Assembly (NCBI RefSeq): GCF_014495685.1
Contig: NZ_JACTVI010000003.1
Location: forward strand, 1 to 64,000
Source of the DNA: Streptomyces sp. TRM68367
Lineage (GTDB): Bacteria > Actinomycetota > Actinomycetes > Streptomycetales > Streptomycetaceae
Direction of reading: 5' to 3'
DNA: 64,000 nt
Positions 43,604 through 58,650 of the stretch are shown one piece after another. The notes below the pieces were generated by a model. The model saw nothing but the letters and a program-made list of their open reading frames with translations. It did not search any database and was not told the origin of the DNA. The position numbers and the translations under genes are program-made. The first letter of the stretch is position 1. The number at the start of each line of letters is the position of its first letter.

Positions 43604-44370
43604 AGGGCGCCCTGGAGCAGGGTGTCACTGACCTCGACACCGCGTTCAACTACCACCACTTCACCTCCCACCGTACCCTCGCGGCGATTGCCGACGATCT
43701 GCTCGCCGCCTTCAACATCTCCACGAAGGTCGGCTACTTCCCCGACGGCCACGACCTCGACCCGGCGCGGATTCGCGCTGCCGTCGAGCAGTCGGCCCAG
43801 GAACTCGGCCGTACCCCGGACACAGTGCTCCTGCACAACCCCGAGTCCTCGGTCGACGGCTTCGCCGACGCGTGCGCCGCGCTCCTGGAGATGCGCGAGG
43901 CGGGAATCTGCAAGAGCTGGGGGCTCTCCACCTGGGACCCTCGGCCTCTCCTCAATGCCGGCTGGGAGATTCCACGCCCGGACGTGGCAATGGTCCGCGC
44001 CGGCCTGACCGTCTCCGCCGGGATCCTCAACGCGGTGGACGAACTCGTCGACCGCGCAAGGATCACAGAGCTGTGGGGCATGGCTCCCTTCGCGGGAAAC
44101 GCGGACGACTCGATCTGGCAGACAGTGGACACCTCCACGTTTCTCGTCCCGGGCCAGCAGTGCAGCACGCTTCAGGCAGGCGTCGCCGCAGCGTTCGCGA
44201 TCCCCGAAGTCACCCGTCTCGCGGTCGGCACCTCCCGAGTCGAGCACCTCGCTGAAGCTGTCGGTGGCTCGCGACTTGAGGTCAACACTGAGACGGTGGC
44301 GGTGTATCGAGCACTGCTGCGCGAGAGGGCTACCGTGAGCGCAGGAGCCCCGTCCAGGAAGGACCACTAG
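43537..44370 (+). CDS. Aldo-keto reductase-family protein overlapping the JmjC gene
   Basis: A 277-aa AKR. The start is a GTG at 43537 with a strong AGGAGG site inside the JmjC gene. From there it reads RRIALGLHRTRHTRHLLEGA, the expected first strand and helix, then DLDTAFNY (Asp, Tyr), STKVGYF (Lys) and VLLHNPE (His): the full catalytic tetrad. The two genes overlap by 67 nt in different frames. Starting later would delete the first beta-strand. The stop overlaps the next GTG. Role: NAD(P)H-dependent carbonyl reduction, substrate unknown. Confidence 0.8.
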   Translation: MRTADRRIALGLHRTRHTRHLLEGALEQGVTDLDTAFNYHHFTSHRTLAAIADDLLAAFNISTKVGYFPDGHDLDPARIRAAVEQSAQELGRTPDTVLLHNPESSVDGFADACAALLEMREAGICKSWGLSTWDPRPLLNAGWEIPRPDVAMVRAGLTVSAGILNAVDELVDRARITELWGMAPFAGNADDSIWQTVDTSTFLVPGQQCSTLQAGVAAAFAIPEVTRLAVGTSRVEHLAEAVGGSRLEVNTETVAVYRALLRERATVSAGAPSRKDH

Positions 44371-45203
44371 TGCAAGCCACCTTGGATGATCTCTCGACCG
44401 TTCCGCTCGACGACGTCCTCGACGACGTCGAGCGGCGGCTCGGTCGTCAGCTCAAGCGCGAGGACGGCCACTTCAGCAAGTACAACGGCACCGCCGGATT
44501 CCGAACCGACGAAGGCACATGGGTCCGGCTCGCCTGGCGACGTGCAGAGAAGATCGACACCCAGGCCTGGACCGGCTTCGAGGCTGCAGCCGCCATCGAT
44601 GGCGTGCCTCGGCCCGGATGGTCGGCAGCGGCCCTCTGGACCGACCAGACACGCGGCGTGGTGTGGCGTGCGGACGAGATGACGCTCGTGGACGAAGGGG
44701 CCCTCTCCTCCACGAGCGACATCACTGAGGACCCGGGACTGCCTGAGCAGTGGTGGATCGACCTCCGGACCGCCCTCACCAACCTCTCGGAGCACTCCAC
44801 GGATCGCGTGTCCATGGGGCAATCTCACTTGACCCGACGGATCCACGAGGTGTACGGCGACGACATCGATACCACGATCAACGACTGGGCCTGCGCCCAC
44901 GGCGACCTCGGCTTCGCCAACCTGTGCGGGCCCCGCCTGTCGATCATCGACTGGGAGAGCTGGGGCATGGGGCCGGCGGGCTGGGATGCAGCCTGTCTGT
45001 GGTCCGCAAGCTTGGCCGTGCCGACCTTTGCAGAGCGAGTCCTGTCCCTGTTCTCCGACGAGCTGTCCAGCCGTAGCGGCAAGCTGTCTCGCCTGCTGCT
45101 GTGCGCCAACGTCGAGCGTGCATACCGGCGGACGGGCAGGAAGGCGCCGCTGACGGACACCATGGCCACGATCGCCGAGTCGCTCTTGCGTGAACTGCGA
45201 TAG
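44370..45203 (+). CDS. Aminoglycoside-phosphotransferase-family protein
   Basis: A 277-aa protein with GTWVRLAWRRAEK in the N-lobe, catalytic loop CAHGDLGFANL and metal site IIDWESWGMGP, so probably an active small-molecule kinase. It closes the operon of peptide, oxygenase and reductase genes. Its GTG shares one base with the AKR stop. Phosphorylation of a product or intermediate, possibly as self-protection, is plausible. Confidence 0.8.
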   Translation: MQATLDDLSTVPLDDVLDDVERRLGRQLKREDGHFSKYNGTAGFRTDEGTWVRLAWRRAEKIDTQAWTGFEAAAAIDGVPRPGWSAAALWTDQTRGVVWRADEMTLVDEGALSSTSDITEDPGLPEQWWIDLRTALTNLSEHSTDRVSMGQSHLTRRIHEVYGDDIDTTINDWACAHGDLGFANLCGPRLSIIDWESWGMGPAGWDAACLWSASLAVPTFAERVLSLFSDELSSRSGKLSRLLLCANVERAYRRTGRKAPLTDTMATIAESLLRELR

Positions 45204-45542: not shown

Positions 45543-46775
45543 TCAGCGGGAGTGCAGAGTGCGCATGTGCTGGACGAACTCGCGTGCCTCGCGATCGCCG
45601 TCGTACTGCTGGATTAGGACTGCGCTGAGATCGCCGGCCACCATCATCAGTGAAGGCAGGGACTGCCGGTCACCTTGGAGGGCCTGCTCGCCGTAAGCGA
45701 GGGCGGCTCCGAGGTCACCGCCTCGGGCAGCGACTACGCCCAGGGTGATCCGGGCCTCGGCGTTGCGCATGGGTGAACGCTCCGTACCGTCGAAGTCCGT
45801 ACCAGCTCGAAGGACTTCGTGGGCCAGGTTCTCGGAGAGATGGTTGTCGCCGACCTTGCGGTAGCAGTCCATGGAGTAGAAGTCCCACTTGCCGGGGTCC
45901 ACCACGAAGTGATTCTGCACGTTCTCCGGGTACGGCAAAGCCTCCAGGAGGCGGCGCCCGGCGTCGAGGGCAACCTCCGTCTGCCGCCGGTCCCCAATCC
46001 TCGCCCAGGCCTTAGCTTTCTGAGCCAACAACTGGACTGCCACGGACTGGTTGGGGGCAATGGCGAGCCCGTCGTCGGCCGCGGCGAGGACGCCGCGCAT
46101 GTCTCCGGTTGTGAGTGCGAACCAGGCGCGCATCTCGTGCGCCCACCCTTGAATTCCTGAGTGTCCGACCTCGCGACCGATCGACAGTGCGGCCTGCCGA
46201 GTGGCCTCCGCGTGGGTGCGGGTCGCACCTCCGCTGTCGTACTCGACGCAGCCCACAAGCAAGGTGAGCATGCCTGCAAGGGCGAGGACGTCTCGGTGCT
46301 GTCCGAGTGTGAGGCGCTGGTGCTGCATGCCAGCGACTCGGTGGAGCCAGGCTCTGCCCTCGACCAGCAGTTGGTCGCCGGGCATGTAGGCGTACTCCGA
46401 GCAGAGCCTGTCCACGGTGATACGGAGCGCATCCAAGGTGGCCTCGTCGACGTCTGAGGCGCGCAGCCGGGCGACGATCTCTACGGTGTCCATGCCGGAG
46501 ACGTCCCGCACCTCGGCGTTCCCGTCCCGGAGATGGTCTACCGGGAAGAAGGCGTGGGTCGTTGTGCCGAAGACGGCCGCGATCAGCGCCTTGTGGTCCC
46601 GGGGCTCGACTGCCCCGGACTCCCAGCGGCGCCAGGATCGCGCGAGCGTCCGCTCATCGGGTAGATCGTGGCTTGAGTGGGCGCGCATGGCACGGGCTGC
46701 ATCGAGGGGACTCCAGCTACGGGCGGCGCGCTCGGACTCCATGCGCCTTGACCAGACGGGGCGGTCGTCGATCAT
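45543..46775 (-). CDS. XRE-type regulator with TPR-like C-terminus
   Basis: A 410-aa protein. The N-terminal part (SPLDAARAMRAHSSHDLPDE, RSWRRWESGAVEPRDHKALI) is a divergent HTH as in Streptomyces XRE-TPR proteins; the remaining 300 residues are helical repeats. It lacks the zinc ribbon of the other regulators. GAGGG precedes the ATG. It runs divergently from the zinc-ribbon regulator at 47056 across a 280-nt gap in which no double-palindrome motif was found. Confidence 0.75.
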   Translation of the reverse strand: MIDDRPVWSRRMESERAARSWSPLDAARAMRAHSSHDLPDERTLARSWRRWESGAVEPRDHKALIAAVFGTTTHAFFPVDHLRDGNAEVRDVSGMDTVEIVARLRASDVDEATLDALRITVDRLCSEYAYMPGDQLLVEGRAWLHRVAGMQHQRLTLGQHRDVLALAGMLTLLVGCVEYDSGGATRTHAEATRQAALSIGREVGHSGIQGWAHEMRAWFALTTGDMRGVLAAADDGLAIAPNQSVAVQLLAQKAKAWARIGDRRQTEVALDAGRRLLEALPYPENVQNHFVVDPGKWDFYSMDCYRKVGDNHLSENLAHEVLRAGTDFDGTERSPMRNAEARITLGVVAARGGDLGAALAYGEQALQGDRQSLPSLMMVAGDLSAVLIQQYDGDREAREFVQHMRTLHSR

Positions 46776-47055
46776 GCCGTGCCCTCCATCTCATCCGTCC
46801 GGCGTTCTCTGTCAGACGAGTCTTGCACGCAGAATCGACCCCTCGCGGGCGGACAGCGGGGACAGCGCAGGGGCACTTGAAGTGACCCCCATGTCCACCC
46901 TTTCGACGGTAACCGTCCGCATACAGAGTGTCGATCGCGTGGTGGCGTTGGGCCCTACCGCGTTGATCGCCGAGGGGCCTGGGTGGAATGAGCGGCGCAG
47001 CGGCATCGATGGATGCGAACAAATCAGCATGCCCGACGGGGACGAGGGGATAGCG

Positions 47056-47490
47056 GTGCTAAAAGAAGGTTATGCCGGGGCGAATGCGATCACCGAACGC
47101 TACCGTCGCTGTTCTCGGTGCGGCTGCCGCCTCAGCCGCTACAACGGCGATTCACGCTGTGGTGGATGTCAGCGAGTCCCCGCGGGTTTACCCCCGAGGC
47201 AACCGCGAGTGCTGCCCGAGGTGTGGACGGATGCGGGTGTTCAGGCGGCGCTTGCCGCCAGAGACTTCGGGAGGTTGTGCACTCTCGTACGGGCAGTCAG
47301 CGGCCTACGTCAAGATGACATGGTCACGCTAACCGGGCTGAGTCAGCCGTTCCTGTCGATGCTGGAAACGGGTGCACGCCGTCTGACGAACATCGACAAG
47401 ATCATCATTCTCCTCGATGGACTGGGTACGCCAGCCGAACTCACCGGTCCGATGCTGCGCTCCTCGACTGCAGAACCAGACGACGACTAG
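47056..47490 (+). CDS. Short zinc-ribbon/HTH regulator
   Basis: A 144-aa protein with zinc ribbon CSRCGCRLSRYNGDSRCGGC and HTH LRQDDMVTLTGLSQPFLSML, RRLTNIDKI, closing LLDGLGTPAELTGPML. It lacks the TPR region of the long paralogues. The GTG at 47056 follows GAGGGG by 7 nt. An ATG at 47029 is an alternative. The gene ends 41 nt before a double-palindrome operator and lies directly before the pentapeptide/P450 operon, so it is a candidate cluster regulator. Confidence 0.8.
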   Translation: MLKEGYAGANAITERYRRCSRCGCRLSRYNGDSRCGGCQRVPAGLPPRQPRVLPEVWTDAGVQAALAARDFGRLCTLVRAVSGLRQDDMVTLTGLSQPFLSMLETGARRLTNIDKIIILLDGLGTPAELTGPMLRSSTAEPDDD

Positions 47491-47902: not shown

Positions 47903-47947
47903 CCGTTGCACCGCCGCCAACCAGCAACAAGGGGAAGGAGGACGGCC

Positions 47948-47965
47948 ATGACGTACGACCACTGA
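47948..47965 (+). CDS. Pentapeptide MTYDH, candidate minimal RiPP precursor (bytA-like)
   Basis: An 18-bp ORF, ATG to TGA, encodes Met-Thr-Tyr-Asp-His. It has one of the best ribosome binding sites in the window (AAGGAGG, 7-nt spacing), which a chance ORF would not need. It lies 80 nt before a P450 gene on the same strand. Biarylitide precursors (bytA) are also 18 bp, encode pentapeptides such as MRYYH with aromatic residue 3 and His 5, and precede a P450 (bytO) that cross-links the two side chains. Here position 3 is Tyr and 5 is His, while positions 2 (Thr) and 4 (Asp) are unusual. It might instead be a translational leader. Confidence 0.65.
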   Translation: MTYDH

Positions 47966-48045
47966 TCCCCAGCGTCGGGCCGGGGCCGGCACCCACTGGC
48001 CCCGGCTCGCTCTGGACACTCCGCCTTGACTCGCGAGGAGAGCCC

Positions 48046-49239
48046 ATGCCACCCACGGTCCCCATGCTCACGTATGACCCCCTGGATCCGGCGACGCTCG
48101 CCGACCCCTACCCGCGTCTTGCCGCGCTGCGGGAGACCAAGCCGGTGTTCTGGCATGAGGGCATGCGGTCCTGGGCCCTGACCCGGTACGCGGACTGTGT
48201 CGCCGTGCTCCGCGACCACACTCGGTTCGCCCGCGACCGGCGGCGCATGGGCGCCGAGGTGCCGGAGCCGTCCTTGAGCGTGCAGTCGATGGACCCGCCG
48301 CAGCAGGCGCCGGTGCGCTCACTGTTCATGAACGCGCTGCGGGCCCAGGACCTCGATGCCATTGAGGTGCGTGCCCGAAAACTGCTGGCCGCCCGGTTCG
48401 ATCAGCTCTCCGGCCGCGCGGAGTTCGACGTGATGGCGGAGATCGCGGCGCCGCTGTCGGTGGCAGTCATCTCGGACCTGCTGGGCGTCGACGAGCCCGA
48501 TCACGGCTCCTTCGCCCAGGTGTCGGACGCGATCATGAGGAGCATGGACGGCGGCCTCGATCCATCCGTCGTCGAGCCGGGCCGGATTGCCCGACAGGAG
48601 CTGAGCATGCTGGTGGAGTCGTGGTTCCTTACCAGCGGCCGACCTGGGCTGTTATCGCATGTCCGAGAGCACGCCCGCCATGCCTCCGATGCCGGCCTCG
48701 ACCGTTTCGTACGCAACACGGCCCGGGTGATGTTCCAGGGCGGTTACAGCACGATGGTCGCGGCTATCGGCAACGCCGTGCACTCTCTGTTGCAGAACCC
48801 CCACGCCCTTCAGCGAATGCGTGACACGGACCTGCTCCGCAGCGGCGTCGACGAACTGATTCGCTACGACGGGCCGGTGCAGGGCACGAGCCGGATCGCA
48901 ACCGAGACCTGCCAGATCGGCGGCGTCACCGTGACGGCGGGCGAGACCGTGACGGTCCTGTTCGCCGCAGCCAACCATGACCCGGCTCAGTTCCCCGACC
49001 CCGGCCGGCTGCTGCTGGACCGCTCGCCGAACCGCCACCTCGGCTACGGCTGGGGCACCCACGCCTGCATCGGCACAGTGCCCGCCCAGATGGCCCTGCG
49101 CGCCCTGGTGTCCAGCCTGGTGGAGCACGCGGCGCCTCTGAAAGCGGCTGCCGAGCCGCAGCGCCGCCGCGCCGCGACGATGCGCGCCTTCGACGTGCTG
49201 CCCGCCGCCTTCCACCCCGAGACGGGAGTACACAGGTGA
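48046..49239 (+). CDS. Cytochrome P450, candidate peptide cross-linking enzyme (bytO-like)
   Basis: A 397-aa P450 with heme loop GYGWGTHACIGTVPA (Cys341) and ExxR DELIRYDGP (E270/R273). The I-helix reads VMFQGGYSTMVAA: the usual acid-Thr pair is replaced, which is seen in P450s that do radical coupling rather than hydroxylation. It follows the pentapeptide gene by 80 nt and overlaps the next gene by 4 nt. The predicted role is a C-C or C-N cross-link between the Tyr and His of MTYDH. The ATG at 48046 follows GAGGAG. Confidence 0.85.
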   Translation: MPPTVPMLTYDPLDPATLADPYPRLAALRETKPVFWHEGMRSWALTRYADCVAVLRDHTRFARDRRRMGAEVPEPSLSVQSMDPPQQAPVRSLFMNALRAQDLDAIEVRARKLLAARFDQLSGRAEFDVMAEIAAPLSVAVISDLLGVDEPDHGSFAQVSDAIMRSMDGGLDPSVVEPGRIARQELSMLVESWFLTSGRPGLLSHVREHARHASDAGLDRFVRNTARVMFQGGYSTMVAAIGNAVHSLLQNPHALQRMRDTDLLRSGVDELIRYDGPVQGTSRIATETCQIGGVTVTAGETVTVLFAAANHDPAQFPDPGRLLLDRSPNRHLGYGWGTHACIGTVPAQMALRALVSSLVEHAAPLKAAAEPQRRRAATMRAFDVLPAAFHPETGVHR

Positions 49240-50633
49240 GGATCCTGATCGCCAATCACATCGACCCTGCCATCCGCGACCGTGGCGACCTGCGGGCCTG
49301 GACACAGCGTGTGCTGTGGTTCGCCCGGGCAGGCGACGTGGTCGTGCTGTGCGACGAGCCCGACCCGCAGTTCCTCACCTACCAGGCCTCGTTCACGGGC
49401 GTGGACCCGGCCAACCTGCATATCTTGGTGCCTCCGATCGGCCGCCATGGCGGCCGCCTGCTGGACCCCGAGAGCCTCACCAGTGACAAGTTCGTCCGTA
49501 CCGTCCGCGACGTACTCGGTGAGCGCGGGCCAGGCGGCGTCGAGGAGGTCTTCGCTCTATGGCCGTCGGCGCACGTGGCCCGTTTTGCCGCCGCGCTGGG
49601 CATCGAAGACCGGTTCCCAGGGGCTGACTTCTTCGCTCAGGGCGGTGGGGAACTGGGCAACAACAAGGCGACCTTCCGCGCGCTCGCGGCCGGAGCCGGA
49701 GTGCAGATCCCCGCCGGAGCCATTGCCCGCAGCGAACGGGAGGCCATCGACGCCACCACCACCCTGCTGGACGAGGTCGGTGCCGTCATGGTCAAGCAGG
49801 CCCACAACGGGGCGGGCGTGGGCAACCAGCTCCTGGTGCGCGACGCCTCCCTCGCGTCCGACCACGTCGGCGCGCGTCACCTCTACCACCTCGACAGTGG
49901 GGGCAGGGAGGCGATTGAGGCGTACTGGAAGGAACGCTGGGACTGGGCTTCCGCTTCCGGTCGCTTCCCAGCCGTCATTGAGGAGTTCGTCCCTGACGCG
50001 GCGTCCGTGTACTCGGAGCACTACGCCGCCGATGACGGAACGCAGCCGACGGAGATGGGGATGCTGCTGTACGTCGGGCGGCGCCTGAGCCACCAGATCG
50101 TGCCCCTGCGCGGGGTGGACGAGAACATCCGTGAGGAGTTGTTGGAGGGCGGGACGCGGCTGGCGGAGGTTTACCGGGCGCTTGGCTATCGCGGGCACCT
50201 GAGTGCGGACGCGATTGCCTTGCCGGACGGGCGGGTGGTGTTCACCGAGGTCAACGCTCAGGTTTCGGGAAGCCTGCACATCTACCAGGCCATTGCCCAC
50301 CGCATCGTCGATACCGCAGCCGCCCCCGAGCGGTCGGTGGTGGAGTATCACGTCCACCCGACCTGGGCCGTCCCCGACTTCGACGCATTTCTCGAGGCCG
50401 CCCATGAGCTCGGCTGCGGCTATGACCCCGCCACCCGCACGGGCGTCATCGTCTCCATGCCGGTCATCCCCATCGAACCCGGGCGCGCCCAGTTCGTGTT
50501 CTGCCTCGCCTACGCCACCGACGCCGATCGCCAGGCGATGTGGGACGCGCTCGACCAGCGGTTCGCGACAGTCCCCGCGGACACGTTTGCCGCGAGCGAC
50601 CACGTCGGCGTACCGGCCCGGCCCCGCTGCTGA
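49236..50633 (+). CDS. PGM1-type ATP-grasp peptide ligase
   Basis: A 465-aa ATP-grasp protein. The N-terminal pre-ATP-grasp region starts VRILIANHIDPA. The ATP-grasp core includes NNKATFRALAAGAGVQIPAG, VMVKQAHNGAGVGNQ and the metal site DGRVVFTEVNAQVSGS. The C-terminal segment (GCGYDPATRTGVIVSMP) matches the tail typical of peptide ligase PGM1-related proteins. PGM1 of pheganomycin joins a guanidino-acid cap to a ribosomal peptide. The GTG overlaps the P450 stop, so coupling with the pentapeptide and amidinotransferase fits that chemistry. Confidence 0.82.
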   Translation: MRILIANHIDPAIRDRGDLRAWTQRVLWFARAGDVVVLCDEPDPQFLTYQASFTGVDPANLHILVPPIGRHGGRLLDPESLTSDKFVRTVRDVLGERGPGGVEEVFALWPSAHVARFAAALGIEDRFPGADFFAQGGGELGNNKATFRALAAGAGVQIPAGAIARSEREAIDATTTLLDEVGAVMVKQAHNGAGVGNQLLVRDASLASDHVGARHLYHLDSGGREAIEAYWKERWDWASASGRFPAVIEEFVPDAASVYSEHYAADDGTQPTEMGMLLYVGRRLSHQIVPLRGVDENIREELLEGGTRLAEVYRALGYRGHLSADAIALPDGRVVFTEVNAQVSGSLHIYQAIAHRIVDTAAAPERSVVEYHVHPTWAVPDFDAFLEAAHELGCGYDPATRTGVIVSMPVIPIEPGRAQFVFCLAYATDADRQAMWDALDQRFATVPADTFAASDHVGVPARPRC

Positions 50634-50659
50634 CCCCGGACCTGGAGAGGGAATCCGTG

Positions 50660-51631
50660 ATGAGCACACCCGAACGCACCCAGCCCGCACCGCTCGCCGA
50701 GGCGGCTCGGCTCGCCTGTTCCTTCGACGCAGACCGTCTCCAAAGCGAGCTGGCCAAGGTCACCGGCCACCGCTGGAAGCCCCAGCGCATCCACGCCCCC
50801 GGCGGCAGCATCGGCCAGGCGGCCACCATTGACTGGCGGGTGCTGCCGCTGCGCAGCCCCGACGGCGACCCGGACCGTACCGACCCCGGCGGCCCCGGCC
50901 CGGTCGACTTCGCGCCCACCGTGTGGATCGACCGGCTGCCGTACCTGCGCGAGATCCTCGATGGAGTTCCGGCGCCGCTGAACGCCGTACGGCTGATGGC
51001 GCTCGGCCCGGGAGCCGTCTCCCGGCCCCACTGCGACCCGAAGTACGCGCTGCACCGCGGCTTCATGCGCCTGCACATCCCCCTCGTCACCCACCCCGGC
51101 GCGGTCCTCGTCCTCGACGGCGTGGAGCACTGCTGGCAGCCGGGCGATTTCTGGTACGGAGACTTTTCCCGGGAGCACCTGGTGCGCAACACGGGACCGG
51201 CGACCCGGGTGCACGCAGTCATCGACGCTTTGCTCACCCGCGAGTTGGCCGAACTGTTCCCCGTCGATTGGCAGGTCGCCCTCGCCCGTGCCGATGTGCT
51301 GTTCAACCAGCCCGCCCCCGCAGCCGCGCCCTGCCCCATCGCATTCCCGTACCCCGCCAGCCTTCCGAGCGGCCTCACCGACTTCGATCACGACCAGCCG
51401 CTGGACGGTCCCCTTCAACCCGTGCAGCTAAGCGAGGCTGACGGACATCTCAGCCTGACCACCGCCGACCGGACCTTCGCCCTTGTCCCGGTCAGACAGA
51501 GCGAGTTCCGCTTCGCCGGGTGGAGCGAGCAGCGCACCCTTCAGCTCACCGACGACGGCGTGGTGCTGCGAGCCCGCCACGGCCGCCAGCTCACCGAACG
51601 CCGCCTGCCGGCCGCGGCGAGCACCCGGTAA
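50660..51631 (+). CDS. Aspartyl/asparaginyl beta-hydroxylase-like oxygenase
   Basis: A 323-aa protein whose residues about 105-190 form an Asp/Asn (Asp_Arg_Hydrox-type) oxygenase domain: LMALGPGAVSRPHCDPKYAL (H124-x-D126), LHIPLVTHPGAVLVLDG, WYGDFSREHLVRN (H173) and a following Arg. The C-terminal 100 residues lack known motifs. The gene sits 26 nt after the ligase, with GAGAGGG upstream; a GTG one codon earlier is equally possible. The Asp of MTYDH is an obvious candidate for beta-hydroxylation. Confidence 0.8.
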   Translation: MSTPERTQPAPLAEAARLACSFDADRLQSELAKVTGHRWKPQRIHAPGGSIGQAATIDWRVLPLRSPDGDPDRTDPGGPGPVDFAPTVWIDRLPYLREILDGVPAPLNAVRLMALGPGAVSRPHCDPKYALHRGFMRLHIPLVTHPGAVLVLDGVEHCWQPGDFWYGDFSREHLVRNTGPATRVHAVIDALLTRELAELFPVDWQVALARADVLFNQPAPAAAPCPIAFPYPASLPSGLTDFDHDQPLDGPLQPVQLSEADGHLSLTTADRTFALVPVRQSEFRFAGWSEQRTLQLTDDGVVLRARHGRQLTERRLPAAASTR

Positions 51632-51672
51632 ACGCCCTGCCGAATCCCTCCCCGTCGCAGATGAGGAACCCC

Positions 51673-52818
51673 ATGCAGCTGACCAGCTACGACGACTTCA
51701 CTCCCCTGCGCGAGATCATCGTCGGCTCCGCAGAGAACTACCTATCCCACGAGCGTGACGTCACCTTCGAACTGTTCCACCACGAGAACCTGACCGGCTT
51801 CCGCTCCGACTGGGCCTACCCCCGCCTGACCGCCGCAGGCGGCGGTACGCCGCAGAGTTGGAGCATCAAGCGGCGCTTCACCGAGGAACTCCACCAGGAC
51901 GTCGAGGCACTGGCCGCCACGCTCGCCGATCTCGGCGTCACCGTGCACCGGCCTCTGCCGCTGCCGCCGAACGCCGCGTCCATCGCCGGGCTGGGCTGGC
52001 AGGCCGAGCCCACCCCGGCCCTGAACATCCGCGACAACACGCTGATCCTTGGCGACGAGATCATCGAGACACCGCCGGCGATCCGCTCCCGCTACCTGGA
52101 GACCCGCCTCCTGGCCCCGGTCTTCCGCCGCTACTACGAGGCTGGCGCCCGGTGGACGACCATGCCGCGCCCCACCCTCACCGATCTCTCCTTCGACCTG
52201 TCCTACGCCAGGGATGCCGCGACAACCCTGGGTGGACCCACCGAGCCCGTCGCCGACCCACAACCGAGCCCGTACGACGTCGGTTTCGAGATGATGCTCG
52301 ACGGCGCCCAGGTCCTGCGCCTGGGCCGCGATCTGGTCGTCAACATCGCCCAGGAGAACCACCGCCAGGGCGTGGACTGGTTGGAGCGGCACCTCGGCGA
52401 CCGATACCGCATCCATCGGGTGCACCGGATGGCCGACAACCACATCGATTCGATGCTGCTGGCATTGCGACCTGGGGTGTTCCTCGCCCGGCACGACGGC
52501 ATCCGCGACCTGCTGCCCGAGGCCCTACAAGCGTGGAAGTTCATCGTCCCGCCCGAGCCCGACCCAGGGGCGTTCCCCGCCTACGACGACACCGACCTGG
52601 TCCTCACCAGCCCGTACATCGACCTCAACGTCCTGTCCATCAACGAGGAGATGGTGCTCGTCAACGAAGACTGCACGAACCTGATCAAGGCCCTCGAAAG
52701 CGAAGGCTTCACCGTCGTTCCCGTACGGCACCGGCACCGTCGGCTCTTCGGCGGCGGCTTCCACTGCTTCACCCTCGACACGGTCCGTGACGGCTCCCAC
52801 GAGGACTATCTGTCGTGA
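51673..52818 (+). CDS. Amidinotransferase (glycine/inosamine amidinotransferase-like)
   Basis: A 381-aa protein of the arginine:X amidinotransferase family. It opens DDFTPLREIIVGSAENYL, carries the catalytic Asp region VGFEMMLDGAQVLRLGRDLV (in outline), the His in RMADNHIDSML, and nucleophile Cys365 in GGGFHCFTLD. Such enzymes move the amidino group of arginine onto an amine to make a guanidine. The ATG at 51673 follows GAGGA. In pheganomycin-type pathways this step supplies the guanidino acid used by PGM1. Confidence 0.88.
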   Translation: MQLTSYDDFTPLREIIVGSAENYLSHERDVTFELFHHENLTGFRSDWAYPRLTAAGGGTPQSWSIKRRFTEELHQDVEALAATLADLGVTVHRPLPLPPNAASIAGLGWQAEPTPALNIRDNTLILGDEIIETPPAIRSRYLETRLLAPVFRRYYEAGARWTTMPRPTLTDLSFDLSYARDAATTLGGPTEPVADPQPSPYDVGFEMMLDGAQVLRLGRDLVVNIAQENHRQGVDWLERHLGDRYRIHRVHRMADNHIDSMLLALRPGVFLARHDGIRDLLPEALQAWKFIVPPEPDPGAFPAYDDTDLVLTSPYIDLNVLSINEEMVLVNEDCTNLIKALESEGFTVVPVRHRHRRLFGGGFHCFTLDTVRDGSHEDYLS

Positions 52819-54086
52819 CAACCCGCGTACTACTCCTTGAGGCGGGCGGCCCCGAGTCCGGTGCGATCGTTCAGACCGCAGTTAGATCCGGCTACCGAGT
52901 GCACGCAGCCACAACCTCGGCCATACACGCCACGTACGACGCCGAGCTGAAGGCTCTACTGTCCGGCTGCCTGCTCACTGACTTCGACCGCCCCGACCAG
53001 ACTCTGCGCGACATCGTCGCCTACGTCCGCAACCAAGACATCAACGCGGTGTTTACGACCAACGAGTACCTCACCGAGCTCCTCGCCCATGTGTGTGCAG
53101 ACCTTGGGCTGCCGGGCAACGACCCAGCTCTGGCAGCCGCGGCACGCGACAAAGCAGCCATGTACAGGGCATTCACCGCTGCAGGCGTCACCACTCCGTA
53201 CAGCCGTCTTGTCAGTAGCGAGGACGAGCTACGCGCCCTGTGCGCCGCAGGAGCCATCGCCTTTCCGTGCGTCATTAAGCCGGTCGACGGTGCCGGCTCC
53301 GCCGGAGTCACCGTGTTGACCAATCTGGCGCAGGTACCAGCGGCTTGGCGGGCTGCTCACGCACCGCACGGCATGTACGGGACGCCCTGCGACGCCAACG
53401 TCCTGGTCCAAGATTACGTTGCCGGCACCGAGTACAGCATCGAATCGATGACACGGCACGGCATCACGACGCACCTGTGCATCACCGAGAAAGCCGTCAC
53501 GCGCGGTGCGTACCGAGTCGAAACCGGCCACAGCCTTCCCGCGGCACTGCCGCCCGTCGCAGAACAGAACGTGCACCACGAAGTGGAGAAGGCGATCGCC
53601 GCAGTCGGCATCCGCAACGGCGCCTCCCACACCGAGGTAATCGTGGGCACGGACGGCCGATGCACTGTCATCGAAATTGGAGCCCGTATCGGCGCCGGCC
53701 AGATCGGCTTTCTCATCCAGCACGCGCTCGGCATAGATCCATGGGCAGCCTGTCTCGACACGGCCATGGGCCGTGCGGCCGACCTCACCCCAACCAGCAA
53801 CGGCTACGCCACCGTTCGGTTCCTCACCAGCCCTCGCCGCGGGCGCATAGCCGCGATGACCGGGCTACCTGAGCGCGGGCCACGAGTCCCGATCGTCCGG
53901 CTGCGCGCGGAAACCGGACAAGTCGTCTACGGAGCCCAAAGGAATGCCACCCGCCTCGGCAGCTTCGTCGTGGTCGGCCCCAACCGGGACACGGTCTCCC
54001 CATATGCAGACCATCTGCTCGCCCAGATCCGCATCGAAGTCGAGCCTGTCGAACCTACGGACAGCCACGCCACGCAGGGAGTCTGA
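52815..54086 (+). CDS. ATP-grasp carboxylate-amine ligase
   Basis: A 423-aa ATP-grasp enzyme with N-terminal Rossmann-like part (VLLLEAGGPESGAIVQTAVR), ATP-binding FPCVIKPVDGAGSAGVTVL, NVLVQDYVAGTEYSIES and metal site VIEIGARIGAGQIGF. Overall it resembles L-amino-acid ligases and carnosine-synthase-like enzymes, which join a carboxylate to an amine through an acyl phosphate. The GTG overlaps the amidinotransferase stop. It gives the operon a second peptide-bond-forming enzyme. Confidence 0.85.
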   Translation: MTTRVLLLEAGGPESGAIVQTAVRSGYRVHAATTSAIHATYDAELKALLSGCLLTDFDRPDQTLRDIVAYVRNQDINAVFTTNEYLTELLAHVCADLGLPGNDPALAAAARDKAAMYRAFTAAGVTTPYSRLVSSEDELRALCAAGAIAFPCVIKPVDGAGSAGVTVLTNLAQVPAAWRAAHAPHGMYGTPCDANVLVQDYVAGTEYSIESMTRHGITTHLCITEKAVTRGAYRVETGHSLPAALPPVAEQNVHHEVEKAIAAVGIRNGASHTEVIVGTDGRCTVIEIGARIGAGQIGFLIQHALGIDPWAACLDTAMGRAADLTPTSNGYATVRFLTSPRRGRIAAMTGLPERGPRVPIVRLRAETGQVVYGAQRNATRLGSFVVVGPNRDTVSPYADHLLAQIRIEVEPVEPTDSHATQGV

Positions 54087-54088
54087 CA

Positions 54089-55060
54089 GTGCCTCATCCA
54101 ACTCCCGCGTCGATCACCGCTGAGTGCTTCCCGACACCGGCTCTCATCCTGCGCACCAACGATCCGACCGCACAGCGAAGCCTGCGCAAGTTCGCCTACC
54201 AACAAGCCGAGGTCGCAACCTCACTCCATCAGGCACTCGACGACGGTCTACGCGGTACCCGGGACATCGACGATCGGACCACGGTCTTCAGCAAGGTGTT
54301 CGAAGCAGCAGAAGACTGGCGGTACCGGATCGCAGAGGCCAGCCCTCAGCCTGTCGGCCGATACGGCTCAACCTGGACAGAGCGGTTTCGCACACCAGTC
54401 ACCGACGACAATCCGAACCTCTTCCGGCTCGGCGAACACGAGAGACTCCGGGAGGGCACCCGTTGGGACCCGACGACGCGGACCTACCTCAGAGGAACTG
54501 AGACTCCAGCCAGCCGAACCATGCGGCAGTTCGGTACCCAAGCCTTCGCGAGGTTCTCCCAAACACCGGACACGGACGTTGTGCGCAACCGAGTCACGAT
54601 GCACGACGGCGAAGTGGTGCACGGAATGCAACTGCTGCGGGGCAATGCCGCCCACCGCGCAGCGACCGAAATGGTCGCCCGGATCGCAGCACGGGGCGGG
54701 GACACGTCCCGCATCATCACCGACGGACACCTGATCTACGTCGCCAGCGCCCCGGAAGCGGACTGCGGGAAGATCTTTCACAACGCAATGATCCTTCTCG
54801 CCCGCGACCACGCTTCCGCCGCCTCTGCGTTGACGGCCTGGTTGCAGGCTGCGTACCTGCTCTACCAAGCGCCGCGCAGGAAACGAGGCAGTGACGCCAC
54901 AGTCCGCACCTTCCTCATCGCCGCCGGCGCCTATCTGTTGGACCGGCTCCCCGTACTACTGCATGACATCGACTTGCGCGCCTACGTCACGCCACAGGAC
55001 CAATTCGTGACCGAACTCCGATCCGCACAAGACGGAGCTGACATCCACGCCGAGGCGTGA
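54089..55060 (+). CDS. Unknown protein, last gene of the pentapeptide operon
   Basis: A 323-aa protein starting 2 nt after the ATP-grasp stop, with AGGGAG upstream of the GTG. The N-terminal two-thirds are polar (RTPVTDDNPNLFRLGEHERL, then VTMHDGEVVHGMQLLRG). The last third is helical and partly hydrophobic (SALTAWLQAAYLLYQAP, RTFLIAAGAYLLDRLP). I do not recognise a family. Its place in a tightly packed biosynthetic operon makes an enzymatic or scaffold role likely. Confidence 0.65.
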   Translation: MPHPTPASITAECFPTPALILRTNDPTAQRSLRKFAYQQAEVATSLHQALDDGLRGTRDIDDRTTVFSKVFEAAEDWRYRIAEASPQPVGRYGSTWTERFRTPVTDDNPNLFRLGEHERLREGTRWDPTTRTYLRGTETPASRTMRQFGTQAFARFSQTPDTDVVRNRVTMHDGEVVHGMQLLRGNAAHRAATEMVARIAARGGDTSRIITDGHLIYVASAPEADCGKIFHNAMILLARDHASAASALTAWLQAAYLLYQAPRRKRGSDATVRTFLIAAGAYLLDRLPVLLHDIDLRAYVTPQDQFVTELRSAQDGADIHAEA

Positions 55061-55095
55061 ACCTCCTCAGCAGTTCGACGTCGCAGATCACGCCT
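55053..55095. terminator. Bidirectional terminator hairpin
   Basis: AGGCGTGA and TCACGCCT form a perfect 8-bp stem with a 27-nt loop between the convergent ends of the pentapeptide operon and the phosphotransferase gene, overlapping both stop regions. Confidence 0.5.
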
Positions 55096-56080
55096 GAAGC
55101 CGGCCAAGTACGTCCTGCATCTCCTTGTAAGTCTCAGGCACCAGGTCGACGTTCCCGAGCCGATGCCGCTCCAGACGAATGGCACCGATGTGCCTCGCCA
55201 GATAGATGTCCGACCGCCGGGCTGCACCCGCAGTCGACGGCCGCGGCCCGTAGGACTCCCAGAAAGCATCCCGCTCGGTGCCGGGCTTCTTACTCGCCAT
55301 GTAGATCGTCCAGTCGGCCTCGGGATCGCCCCACCACGTGCGGTCGAAATCGAGCACCCCAGTGATCACTGGCTCCGGCGCAACGGCGTCGAGCATCACG
55401 TTCACGGTCCAGAAATCACCAGCGATCATCCGCGGCTCGGTGATCTCGTCCAGGACAGCCTTGTCATGGCAAGCGACAGCAGCAACTTCGCGCAGGTCCG
55501 TAGCGTCCAGTCCAAGGCTGTCGACATCGGCGGCGATTTCTTCCAGAGAAGCAACCACGGCCGCACTCCATGTCGGATACGCCGGTCCCGATACCGGCCC
55601 GAAGTGCGGGCCACGCACCGCGTGCACGGCCTTCGCGATCGTGCCCATCTGGAGGAAGAACTTCGGCCAGAGCGTGCGGGGATAGTCGCCGATGCGCTCC
55701 GGTGCCGGGACGCCGTCGAGGAGACTCTGAACCATGTAGTCCCGGCCCATGATTTCGTGTGACCAGTCCGCAGCGATCACTCGCGGCATCAGCGATGCGA
55801 TTCCTGCGAGCCACGGCACGCTGGCGTACTCGTTGCGCATCAACTGATGCTCGGAGCGGAACTGCCGCCCTGGTTCCGGCGCAACTCGCAGGATGACTGG
55901 CCGCTCCTGGCCTTCTAGTTCGATGAGGTAGGTGTTGTTGTACATGCCCGCACCCAACTCGGTGGCAGACAGGGCTCGGGCATCGATGCCGAAGACACGT
56001 TGGCAGATCGCCTGAATCTCCTTGGTGGTCACCGACTGCTGGAACGCCTCAGAAGCGCGTTCGATCGGCCGGAAGTCCAT
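55088..56080 (-). CDS. Aminoglycoside-phosphotransferase-family protein
   Basis: A 330-aa APH-family protein with nucleotide-lobe RPVILRVAPEPG, a modified catalytic loop RMIAGDFWTVNVML (GD-x4-N kept) and metal site GVLDFDRTWWGDP. Activity is plausible. The ATG at 56080 follows GGGGAG; another ATG lies four codons upstream. It is convergent to the pentapeptide operon and could serve it, for example by phosphorylating the product, but nothing in the sequence proves a link. Confidence 0.8.
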   Translation of the reverse strand: MDFRPIERASEAFQQSVTTKEIQAICQRVFGIDARALSATELGAGMYNNTYLIELEGQERPVILRVAPEPGRQFRSEHQLMRNEYASVPWLAGIASLMPRVIAADWSHEIMGRDYMVQSLLDGVPAPERIGDYPRTLWPKFFLQMGTIAKAVHAVRGPHFGPVSGPAYPTWSAAVVASLEEIAADVDSLGLDATDLREVAAVACHDKAVLDEITEPRMIAGDFWTVNVMLDAVAPEPVITGVLDFDRTWWGDPEADWTIYMASKKPGTERDAFWESYGPRPSTAGAARRSDIYLARHIGAIRLERHRLGNVDLVPETYKEMQDVLGRLQA

Positions 56081-56503
56081 GCTGCTCCCCATCACTCGGC
56101 TTCGCCCTCGTCCTGTCCGAGGGCACATACTCCATTGCCTTCGGCTGCCTGCTGAGGATGAAGGGACGCCAATCGTCTCTTCCTCACCTGGTCGGCACAT
56201 TACGACCGAAGCCTCAGAGGGCGGACAGGAACGAGTCGAGGGTATCGGTTCGAGACAATCGCGGGTTCGCAGAGGTGGACAGCGAACTTGCCGTCACGCT
56301 GATGGTGAGGTCAGACCTCTTAGGTGCGCTGCCCGAGCATCTCCGTTGCCCACCATGGAGGTGATGGCGCTGGCCCGTGATCCACATGGCCCACCCTGTG
56401 ATCTTTGGCCGGGGGTACGGGACCATTCACGTGATGTTGTTAGTTCTATCCTGTGGCTTTTGGCGATGTGTTGGCCACGGGCGGATTCCCCTTCAATATT
56501 CAA
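56081..56503. other. Intergenic region, no gene seen
   Basis: Both neighbouring genes are on the minus strand. I see no supported ORF, RNA gene or operator copy in these 423 bases. The second half is less GC-rich, consistent with promoter sequence for the phosphotransferase gene at 56080. Confidence 0.4.
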
Positions 56504-56923
56504 TCATTCGTGCACGGCGCGCCATCCGTCGGGCTCGTCCATCCGGTTCGGCATTCGGAGCATGGGCCCAGTAAGTTCCGCCGGAGTGTTGAGTCCGCCA
56601 AGGAGCTCGACAATCTTGTCAATGTTAGTCAGCCTTCGTGTGCCTGACTCCAGCATGGATAAGAATGCCTGACTCAGTCCGGTGAGCTCGGCCATGTCGC
56701 TCTGGCGTAGATCGCCGGCCACGCGCACCAGTTGGCACAGCCTGCCGAAGTCGCGAGCGAGCAGGGCTTCCCGAACGTCCGCACGCGCCCATACTGCAGT
56801 CGGCACGCAGGGAGTTGGCTCAGGCTGATGCCGTGCCCTGCGTGAACAGCCGCTGCAGTACGGCTCCTCGTTATACCGACTGAGGATGCATTGGCAGCGT
56901 CGGCACCGGCGGGCGTCTCGCAT
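56504..56923 (-). CDS. Short zinc-ribbon/HTH regulator, second copy
   Basis: A 139-aa paralogue of the regulator at 47056, with zinc ribbon CRRCQCILSRYNEEPYCSGC, HTH LRQSDMAELTGLSQAFLSML, RRLTNIDKI and the ending LNTPAELTGPML. The ATG at 56923 lies just before the zinc ribbon. Only weak GGCGAG precedes it, so a start further upstream (to 57058) cannot be excluded. It is the fourth member of this family in the window. Confidence 0.75.
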   Translation of the reverse strand: MRDARRCRRCQCILSRYNEEPYCSGCSRRARHQPEPTPCVPTAVWARADVREALLARDFGRLCQLVRVAGDLRQSDMAELTGLSQAFLSMLESGTRRLTNIDKIVELLGGLNTPAELTGPMLRMPNRMDEPDGWRAVHE

Positions 56924-57306
56924 CTCGCCGGAGTTGCTGATGTCCTCCGTCCATGAACCCCGCCGGATGGAGGCGCCAAGCAGTACATCGCCCACCGGGT
57001 GTGTGGTGATCGCGGGCCGACTCGTCGACAAGGGGGTGCTCGTCGCCGGATAGCGCATGGCGAGGCTCCATCAGTAGATCGGTGATCTCGTGCAGAACCG
57101 GGCTCACTGGCCGGCGGGGTATCTGCGACCCGACCACGTCCTGGTCCTCGGGCTCGACAGCTGAGCGGCCTGGTGCATCAGTCAAGCCATCCGGTGACCA
57201 GGCGGGAACGTTTCTAGGGGGTTTCTCTCGACGCTGAGGGTGCTCATGTGCACGTCAGCGTGGGTAACCTCCCAATTATCGAATGAGGTTGACGGGGAGG
57301 CATGAC
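56924..57306. other. Divergent promoter region between two regulators
   Basis: This gap separates the minus-strand zinc-ribbon regulator and a plus-strand XRE regulator. There is no convincing ORF and no copy of the double-palindrome operator. Confidence 0.4.
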
Positions 57307-58650
57307 GTGGCCGGCGAGTCGTTAGCAGTGCACCCACTGACCTTCGTCCGCCAGTCGAGCGGGTGGGGGAAGGCAGAGTTCGCCCGGCTTATGCAGGCGC
57401 GGGGGAAGGAACTGGGCATCCCCCTGGCCACCAATCGCACAACCGTATGGAAGTGGGAGCAAGGCCAGGAGCCGGACGCCGACGCTCAGCGCGTCCTCGC
57501 TGACCTGCTGCGCGTCCCGTACGAACAGGTCCAGGACGAAGGATGGCCGCGTTGGCTCCCCGTATGGGAAGTCACCGGGCTCACCGCTCCCTGGACCGAG
57601 GCCGGTACCGTCGAGGCACTGGCTGACCTGGTTGGGAGTGGCCGCATGGACCGTCGGGGGTTTCTCACCATCACCGGCGCCGCCCTGACGGGGCTGGTGG
57701 CGAGCTGGGCCGAGGCGCCCTCTGCATTCGCCTCAGCACTCAACGGAGATCGAATCACCGACACCATGGTCTCGACGATCGAGCAGCGCATCAGCACTCT
57801 CCGTACGCTCGATGACCAACTCGGGGGCGCCCGACTTCTGGAGCAGGCCCGCGGCGATCTCGCCCTGATTGCTGGTCTCCTGGACGCTGGCCGGTACTCG
57901 GACAAGATCCGCATCCGCCTGTACGCGCTGGCGGCCCGGGTGTCGCATCTGACCGGCTGGATGGCCTACGACGCGGGGTTTCGGTCCGCCGGGCAGCGGT
58001 ACTACGTCGGAGCCATGCGCAGCGCCCGCACCGCTGGCGACGACGCCTTCGGCGCCTTCGTCCTGGCAGAGATGGGAGTCCACGTCTCCGAGGCCGGACG
58101 GACCGCCGAGCGGGTCGATCTCATCACGACTGCCATCGACAACGCTCCTCGAACGCTGTCGCCCTACTCCCGGTCCTTCCTCTACCTGCACAAGGCCGAG
58201 GCGCTGTCCCGCGATGGCGACCACCGGAGGGCTGGAGCGGCGCTGAACCGTGCCGCTTCCCTCTGGGAACGCCACACGGTGGAGGAACACCCGGACTGGC
58301 TCGACTGGTTCGGCGAGGCACAACTGAAGTCCACCGAGGGCAAGGTCCTGCTGCGCTCGGGCCAGGTGGAACGCGCCACGCGCTCGCTGGAGACCTCCGT
58401 CAAGAAGGCCGCCCCCCGGGACAAGGCCGTACGGTCCAGCCGACTGGCCGAGGCCCGGCTCGCCGGTAGCGACCTGGATGGGGCGCTCGACGCCGCCAAT
58501 TACGGCGCCGATCTCCTCGAAGACAAGGTCAGCTCCGTTCGGGCTCTGGACCGGCTGAAGGAGTTCTCCGTGCAGCTTCAACCGCACAAGTCCGTTCCAG
58601 CCGTCCGTGAGTTCCGCGAGCGTATTCAGGCGCTGCCCGTCACAGCCTGA
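57307..58650 (+). CDS. XRE-type regulator with TPR-like C-terminus
   Basis: A 447-aa regulator. The N-terminal HTH (FVRQSSGWGKAEFARLMQAR, then TTVWKWEQGQEPD) is typical of XRE-TPR proteins. The segment MDRRGFLTITGAALTGLVAS is followed by helical repeats. The same MDRR-FLT phrase occurs in the regulator at 25760. The GTG at 57307 follows GGGGAGG. The target is unknown. Confidence 0.8.
   Translation: MAGESLAVHPLTFVRQSSGWGKAEFARLMQARGKELGIPLATNRTTVWKWEQGQEPDADAQRVLADLLRVPYEQVQDEGWPRWLPVWEVTGLTAPWTEAGTVEALADLVGSGRMDRRGFLTITGAALTGLVASWAEAPSAFASALNGDRITDTMVSTIEQRISTLRTLDDQLGGARLLEQARGDLALIAGLLDAGRYSDKIRIRLYALAARVSHLTGWMAYDAGFRSAGQRYYVGAMRSARTAGDDAFGAFVLAEMGVHVSEAGRTAERVDLITTAIDNAPRTLSPYSRSFLYLHKAEALSRDGDHRRAGAALNRAASLWERHTVEEHPDWLDWFGEAQLKSTEGKVLLRSGQVERATRSLETSVKKAAPRDKAVRSSRLAEARLAGSDLDGALDAANYGADLLEDKVSSVRALDRLKEFSVQLQPHKSVPAVREFRERIQALPVTA

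What the first reader, a model, noticed from the sequence alone, without database searches (positions are those of the whole stretch)
47948..55060. Pentapeptide MTYDH heads an operon with P450, PGM1-type ligase and amidinotransferase
Seen: an 18-bp ORF with a near-ideal ribosome binding site, 80 nt before a P450, followed by two ATP-grasp ligases, an Asp-hydroxylase-like oxygenase, an amidinotransferase and an unknown gene, all tightly packed. Known: biarylitides use 18-bp precursor genes such as MRYYH plus a P450 that links residues 3 and 5; pheganomycin uses a PGM1 ATP-grasp ligase to join a guanidino acid to a ribosomal peptide. Inference: this operon merges both logics, making a Tyr-Asp-His cross-linked core that is hydroxylated and capped with a guanidino acid. 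I know of no described pathway with that combination.
Basis: partly seen in the sequence, partly recalled or inferred. Interest (0 to 1): 0.95.

Follow-up and report, generated by a model that had tools for sequence, protein, structure and literature searches.

The report
Five-residue gene heads guanidino-peptide operon
An 18-base gene encoding only Met-Thr-Tyr-Asp-His heads a conserved, sometimes plasmid-borne gene cluster that is predicted to cross-link the Tyr and His and would likely cap the peptide with a guanidino acid, next to a kinase gene that may protect the producer; the pairing of such precursors with this ligase type was already published in 2026, but the product is unknown.

Summary
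MTYDH (47948-47965) is a real gene: 29 of 29 distinct loci of this operon type examined, the window included, carry MxYDH before the P450. The P450 belongs with pentapeptide P450s and lacks the RufO residues held to favour nitration, so cross-linking is favoured. Three plasmids opened carry the same cassette. The combination is not undescribed: Padva et al. (PMC13417212, July 2026) report 47 clusters joining Pgm1 homologues with Asp-4 precursors. Not found in the parts of that paper that I read or searched: the kinase, the alternating methyltransferase/unknown gene, plasmid carriage, and a related branch with a heptapeptide, MRYDHCL, whose P450 has lost both arginines that hold the peptide C-terminus in RufO. 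Guanidino capping, Asp hydroxylation, cross-link type and self-protection are inferred. A solid new variant of a known kind.

The parts
47935..47941 (+). ribosome-binding site AAGGAGG of the pentapeptide gene
   Evidence: sequence; purine-rich sites precede the ORF in the aligned relatives
47948..47965 (+). precursor gene MTYDH*
48046..49239 (+). cytochrome P450, biarylitide/RufO clade; predicted Tyr3-His5 cross-linking enzyme
   Evidence: PF00067 E 1.7e-14; PDB best group RufO 8spp 293 bits, P450Blt 8u2m 259 bits; tree
49236..50633 (+). PGM1-type ATP-grasp peptide ligase (GTG start, overlaps the P450 stop)
   Evidence: 3wvq PGM1 E 5e-79; PF18604
50657..51631 (+). AspH-like Fe/2-oxoglutarate oxygenase (start GTG 50657 or the next codon, ATG 50660)
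   Evidence: PF05118 E 1.7e-13; HxD...H in 25 of 25 rows
51661..52818 (+). amidinotransferase
   Evidence: 1bwd inosamine-phosphate amidinotransferase E 5e-47, SxtG, Arg:Gly amidinotransferase; GGGFHC in 27 of 27 rows
52815..54086 (+). second ATP-grasp ligase, L-amino-acid-ligase/DdaF-like
   Evidence: PF13535 and PF18603; 3vot and 30vh E about 1e-16
54089..55060 (+). gene of unknown family; replaced by a methyltransferase or absent in other loci
   Evidence: no Pfam match; 85 homologues, none with a Pfam domain listed
55088..56200 (-). convergent APH-family kinase; possible self-protection gene
   Evidence: PF01636 E 4.7e-16; matched in 22 of 23 relatives

Best explanation
MTYDH is the conserved precursor gene of a P450/PGM1-ligase operon that is predicted to turn it into a Tyr-His side-chain-cross-linked Tyr-Asp-His tripeptide, which would then likely be hydroxylated and capped at its N-terminus with a guanidino acid, while the adjacent convergent APH-family kinase may protect the producer. 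Shown by sequence: the pentapeptide gene and its conservation, the gene set and its co-occurrence, and retained motifs. Inferred, in the likeliest order: (1) the P450 joins Tyr3 to His5, perhaps C-C rather than C-N because Gln replaces the His that directs C-N bonding in P450Blt; (2) Met and residue 2 are removed by a protease encoded outside the cassette; (3) the amidinotransferase moves the amidino group of Arg onto an amino acid such as Gly; (4) the two ATP-grasp ligases join this guanidino acid, with or without a linking amino acid, to the Tyr amine, as PumK and PumM do in pseudouridimycin; (5) the AspH-like oxygenase hydroxylates, most simply the invariant Asp; (6) the kinase phosphorylates and inactivates the product inside the producer.
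For: MxYDH in 29 of 29 distinct loci with residues 3-5 fixed and residue 2 variable. PGM1, amidinotransferase and second ligase match in 23 of 23 relatives, AspH in 21, whereas 0 of 8 contigs with non-YDH relatives of the P450 show any of the four at E 1e-6. All 24 YDH P450s keep Arg188 and Arg231, which hold the peptide backbone and C-terminus in RufO, but have Met for Asp169 and Thr for Val240, the two residues by which RufO differs from P450Blt around His-5 and Tyr-3. Amidinotransferase (59-63%) and PGM1 relatives (35-39%) share stretches in 7 other loci (L113, L115, L159, L161, L162, L201, L202), one with DpgA. PumN, PumK and PumM give a precedent for a guanidino acid added by ATP-grasp ligases. 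Three plasmids opened carry the same cassette.
Against: No product, no enzyme assay. The published MRYVH cluster has amidinotransferase and AspH genes without Asp-4, and no PGM1 is named, so neither enzyme need act as supposed here; its expression gave no hydroxylated or amidinated peptide. YDH P450s also lack the His and Glu of the I-helix that RufO and P450Blt share, and have Val for the Ala: all three specificity residues named for P450Blt differ, so its chemistry cannot simply be carried over. The source of the amidinated amino acid is unknown. AspH is absent in L003 and L018. The kinase match in L007 covers only residues 265-369, and the kinase also occurs without the cluster. Sequences of PumK, PumM and PumN were not compared with the window's.
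Confidence: 0.55

Rival explanations
1. The tripeptide is cross-linked, but the amidinotransferase acts directly on its N-terminal Tyr amine, and the two ligases extend another end or make a separate building block.
For: The MRYVH cluster of PMC13417212 has amidinotransferase and AspH but no ligase is named. No gene for a special amino acid is seen among the window's operon genes.
Against: That cluster, expressed with both genes, gave no amidinated peptide. In 7 other loci the amidinotransferase family goes with PGM1 relatives, and in pheganomycin PGM1 joins a guanidinoacetic acid to a peptide (passages).
Confidence: 0.25
2. The peptide is a scaffold, as in rufomycin: the P450 nitrates or otherwise oxidises the Tyr without cross-linking, and a single modified amino acid is released and used by the ligases.
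For: RufO structures score highest among solved P450s; ligases for free amino acids are present.
Against: Asp169 and Val240 of RufO are Met and Thr in 24 of 24; no NO synthase among the nine genes scanned. In L106, which has a P450 92% identical to RufO, the precursor seen is MRYLH, not YDH.
Confidence: 0.08
3. A plain biarylitide with unrelated neighbours: the cluster genes serve another product.
For: Many biarylitide P450s stand without these genes.
Against: Strict co-occurrence and order in 23 of 23 relatives, with overlapping genes, and the same set on three plasmids among different neighbours.
Confidence: 0.06
4. MTYDH is a regulatory short ORF, not a precursor.
For: Short ORF with a strong ribosome-binding site 80 nt upstream.
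Against: Residues 3-5 fixed while residue 2 varies; relatives carry other aromatic pentapeptides, and such precursors are experimentally shown substrates of this P450 family.
Confidence: 0.02

Closest known systems
Biarylitide clusters (BytA/BytO, P450Blt), above all the Pgm1 / Asp-4 group of PMC13417212
   Same: 18-bp precursor gene MxYxH next to a cross-linking-type P450; a Pgm1 homologue with Asp at position 4 is exactly the reported association.
   Different: The paper's main text names neither the kinase nor YDH (term searches); its supplements could not be opened here. Product still unknown.
Saccharothrix variisporea sav cluster (MRYVH, savT amidinotransferase, savH AspH), PMC13417212
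   Same: Pentapeptide, P450, amidinotransferase and AspH genes.
   Different: Val at position 4; no PGM1 or second ligase named; only cross-linked YVH was obtained.
Pheganomycin (PGM1)
   Same: PGM1-type ligase (E 5e-79 to 3wvq) and an amidinotransferase.
   Different: No DpgA-type synthase among the window genes scanned; P450-modified pentapeptide instead of its precursor.
Pseudouridimycin PumK/PumM/PumN
   Same: Amidinotransferase with two carboxylate-amine ligases of the ATP-grasp type.
   Different: Nucleoside scaffold; works-like only, no sequence comparison made here.
RufO (rufomycin)
   Same: About 40% identical P450 acting on an MxYxH pentapeptide.
   Different: Nitration residues not kept; no NO synthase among genes scanned.
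OF4949 and K-13
   Same: Cross-linked aromatic tripeptides; OF4949 inhibits aminopeptidase B, K-13 ACE (passages of PMC13192836). A hydroxylated middle residue in OF4949 is recalled, not from a call.
   Different: Tyr-Tyr ether link; made by other enzymes.

Membership tests
Biarylitide cluster | five-residue precursor MxYxH/Y encoded close to its P450 | tested here: met
Biarylitide cluster | P450 of the BytO/P450Blt clade | tested here: met
Biarylitide cluster | biaryl cross-link between residues 3 and 5 | not testable with these tools
   needs enzyme assay
Pgm1 / Asp-4 biarylitide group (PMC13417212) | Pgm1 homologue with Asp at precursor position 4 | tested here: met
Pheganomycin-type peptide | PGM1 ligase and amidinotransferase | tested here: met
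Pheganomycin-type peptide | genes for a dihydroxyphenylglycine-derived acid (DpgA) | tested here: not met
   none among the nine window genes scanned; present in L113
Pheganomycin-type peptide | N-terminal guanidino acid on the product | not testable with these tools
   no product
RufO nitrating P450 | Asp169 and Val240 | tested here: not met
   Met and Thr in 24 of 24
RufO nitrating P450 | NO synthase in the cluster | tested here: not met
   none among nine genes scanned
APH-family kinase | PF01636 match and GD(x)4N motif | tested here: met
   motif seen in 23 of 26 rows; L007 is partial and L004 and L022 were misread by the script
APH-family kinase as self-protection | phosphorylates the cluster's product | not testable with these tools
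   position and conservation only
AspH family | PF05118 match and HxD...H iron site | tested here: met
   (25 of 25 rows)
Amidinotransferase | relatedness to solved amidinotransferases and Cys in GGGFHC (catalytic role recalled) | tested here: met
   (27 of 27 rows)

The most novel reading that the evidence does not exclude
This is a self-contained, plasmid-mobile cassette for a bioactive biarylitide class: an 18-bp gene specifies a Tyr-Asp-His macrocycle that is guanidino-capped in the manner of pseudouridimycin, hydroxylated, and kept harmless to its maker by a dedicated phosphotransferase; and a related branch puts the same YDH core inside a heptapeptide, MRYDHCL, its P450 having lost exactly the two arginines that grip the peptide C-terminus.
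Probability: 0.35. Interest if true: 0.85.

Novelty: new variant of a known kind. Interest (0 to 1): 0.6.

Why it matters
The biological function of biarylitides is unknown; the YVH product of PMC13417212 showed no activity in its assays. A conserved cluster with a possible protection kinase points to a subgroup that may be bioactive and makes that testable. The MxYDH and MRYDHCL systems together offer a natural experiment on how a P450 recognises a five-residue substrate, and the plasmids show two peptide chemistries fused in one small cassette.

Tried and rejected
RufO-like nitration was considered because RufO scores best in the PDB; disfavoured on residues and on the absence of an NO synthase among the genes scanned. 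A regulatory ORF was rejected on conservation. The product of 54089-55060 stayed unassigned: 45 of its 85 homologues were aligned; no PDB match up to E 1, and no Pfam family matched more than 2 of 45 members (best E 0.00042, not credible). The published MRYVH cluster was sought through its amidinotransferase in 327 genomes of one family: 34 matched, 9 were opened, none showed it. A pseudouridimycin cluster was sought by TruD in 20 genomes: one has TruD, about 7 Mb from its ligase. L104 (P450 51% identical) gave only MRYND with a weak ribosome-binding site; left open.

Literature searches that gave no other report of this combination: (listings; passages of some papers). One search covered the letters MSYDH, MFYDH, MTYDH and MRYDH: 5 papers hold one of them, unrelated by title.

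Rows left out of counts: of the 80 P450 loci kept, only L001-L025 were read for pentapeptides; all 80 were screened for cluster genes, where L050 was the only one besides L001-L023 to match one (amidinotransferase, 50%). L150, L152, L154, L155, L156 and L200 repeat earlier loci and are not among the 29; G316 (L083, L094) has the contig length of L017. In one search the rows include the repeat L150.
Full report
Observation. The 18-bp ORF MTYDH* is at 47948-47965 with AAGGAGG 6 nt upstream, 80 nt before the P450 ATG at 48046. It is the only match in the window to the strict and the loose motif; 100 shuffles give none. The genes that follow are packed with gaps of -4 to 29 nt.

The pentapeptide is a gene. 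A scan of genome contigs gave 231 P450 relatives, of which 80 were kept. Of the 25 closest, 23 actinobacterial loci (56-79% P450 identity) carry MxYDH starting 77-153 nt upstream of the P450 match; the 2 Lysinibacillus loci (45-46%) carry 3 and 4 copies of MQWNY. Residue 2 is Ser in 16, Phe in 4, Thr in 2, Arg in 1 and Gly in 1 of 24, the window included; Tyr, Asp and His are fixed, with one TAT codon, one TAA stop and one GTG start. Five further loci, L151, L153 and plasmid loci L215, L216 and L217, also have it: 29 of 29 distinct loci.

Gene set. In the 23 relatives PGM1, amidinotransferase and second ligase match in 23 (the ligase of L023 is cut by the contig end; the PGM1 match of L017 is partial), AspH in 21 (none in L003 and L018; partial in L017), and the APH-family kinase in 22 (the L023 contig ends first; in L007 only residues 265-369 match). 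Between second ligase and kinase lies the window's unassigned gene in 4 of 23, a SAM methyltransferase in 7 of 23, and neither was matched in 12, of which L023 is cut. Ten plasmid records hold a PGM1 relative, 4 of them at 57.9% identity or more; I opened 3 of these, and all 3 hold pentapeptide, P450, PGM1, AspH, amidinotransferase, second ligase and convergent kinase, one of them on a plasmid typed conjugative. The fourth has the record length of the contig of L151. Different genes lie on either side there, which suggests cassette limits from pentapeptide to kinase.

Control. Of 394 class genomes, 9 have a P450 match at E 1e-60, 11 places in all. The 8 contigs holding the 9 places outside the window and G316 show MRYAY, MRYLH, MKYWH, MRYIY, MSYRH, MRYFY and MRYYH within 1.4 kb of the P450, and one shows only MRYND; none of the 8 matches PGM1, AspH, amidinotransferase or second ligase at E 1e-6. 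The ligase module goes with YDH, not with this P450 family at large.

P450. RufO numbering was checked against residues named in passages of PMC12186263; the residue called Glu84 there reads Gln here, as in PMC10929621. All 24 YDH P450s keep Arg188 and Arg231. They have Met for Asp169 and Thr for Val240, where P450Blt has Val and Ser: at these two positions, held to matter for nitration, they are nearer to the cross-linker. They depart from both enzymes at His235 (Gln) and Glu239 (Ser). In P450Blt the I-helix residues Ala231, His234 and Glu238 control specificity and His234 directs C-N bonding (passages of PMC10929621); all three differ here, so a C-C link is a suggestion only. Residue 69, Phe in RufO and near Arg-2 of its peptide, is Arg or Pro in 24 of 24 and Phe, Trp or Leu in the ten other relatives tabulated, in step with the loss of Arg-2 in 23 of 24 precursors. 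In the tree the 24 form one clade (support 0.972).

Heptapeptide branch. Of 295 genomes of the window's genus, 21 have a PGM1 match at E 1e-40, 22 places: 8 places at 61% or more (window included), all with MxYDH, and two at 43-45%, L157 and L158. These two hold MRYDHCL* behind GGAAAGGAGGGG, P450 46-47%, an MFS transporter, amidinotransferase 27-28%, second ligase 26-27%, PGM1 42-44%, and in L157 a CysE-like acetyltransferase and a CysK-like synthase were identified. No AspH or kinase match was found in these stretches. The two precursors differ by one synonymous Arg codon and are nearly identical around it, so they count as one observation. Their P450s have Gly and Ser for Arg188 and Arg231: the clamp on the C-terminus is gone where the core is not C-terminal. 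The tree places them with L104 and the Lysinibacillus MQWNY enzymes, next to the YDH clade (support 0.982 for the whole), so a shared origin of the two YDH cores is not shown. The CysE/CysK pair suggests a beta-substituted alanine as amidinotransferase substrate (inference).

Amidinotransferase and ligases. The nearest solved relatives are an inosamine-phosphate amidinotransferase, SxtG and Arg:Gly amidinotransferase. PGM1 relatives (35-39%) share a stretch with amidinotransferases (59-63%) in L113, L115, L159, L161, L162, L201 and L202; L113 also has DpgA above its cut-off, the pheganomycin setting. In pseudouridimycin PumN supplies guanidinoacetate, PumK adds glutamine and PumM adds guanidinoacetate (passage of PMC6586884). 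The window has the same three enzyme types, so a guanidino acid joined by ATP-grasp ligases is the simplest reading; which acid is a guess.

Kinase. It is convergent to the operon. It also occurs alone: 10 of 394 genomes match (12 places), and 7 contigs opened from 6 of them show no P450, PGM1 or amidinotransferase; L164 keeps the C-terminal part of the second ligase beside it. Self-protection fits but is not shown, and the partial copy in L007 speaks against it being always needed.

Literature. PMC13417212 (introduction, sections 7, 8, 10, 12 and search passages seen; the rest and the supplements not) reports 47 clusters with a Pgm1 homologue and Asp at position 4, and an MRYVH cluster with amidinotransferase and AspH genes whose expression gave only cross-linked YVH, inactive in its assays. 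'YDH', 'kinase' and 'phosphotransferase' do not occur in its main text. Passages of PMC12951456 put leader removal after cross-linking and point to a prolyl oligopeptidase for myxarylin.

Verdict.

Noticed in passing
window 45543-47490 and 56504-58650: The cassette is flanked on both sides by an NsdA-family regulator (one search left, right) and by a pair of similar small HTH proteins with the same Cys-rich motif; a match to the right-hand NsdA-type regulator lies upstream of the P450 in 14 of 23 relatives at 25-33% identity.
   Followed up: partly
L104, about 224 nt upstream of the P450 match: A P450 51% identical to the window's, followed by a likely transporter gene, has only MRYND upstream, with no aromatic fifth residue; either a new substrate type or a missed precursor.
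   Followed up: partly
L114 and L116: Two amidinotransferase genes lie in one stretch; in L114 each has a P450 nearby.
   Followed up: no
L017 (Candidatus Frankia californiensis): Same cluster, but PGM1 and AspH matches are only partial, perhaps decaying.
   Followed up: no
window 44370-45203: A kinase-like gene without a Pfam match has a 43% relative just beyond the APH kinase in L003.
   Followed up: no
L024 and L025: Lysinibacillus P450s with 3 and 4 tandem MQWNY genes upstream, as PMC13417212 also reports for the genus.
   Followed up: no
L164 (G362:C9): An APH kinase kept beside a C-terminal remnant of the second ligase with the rest of the cluster not matched.
   Followed up: partly
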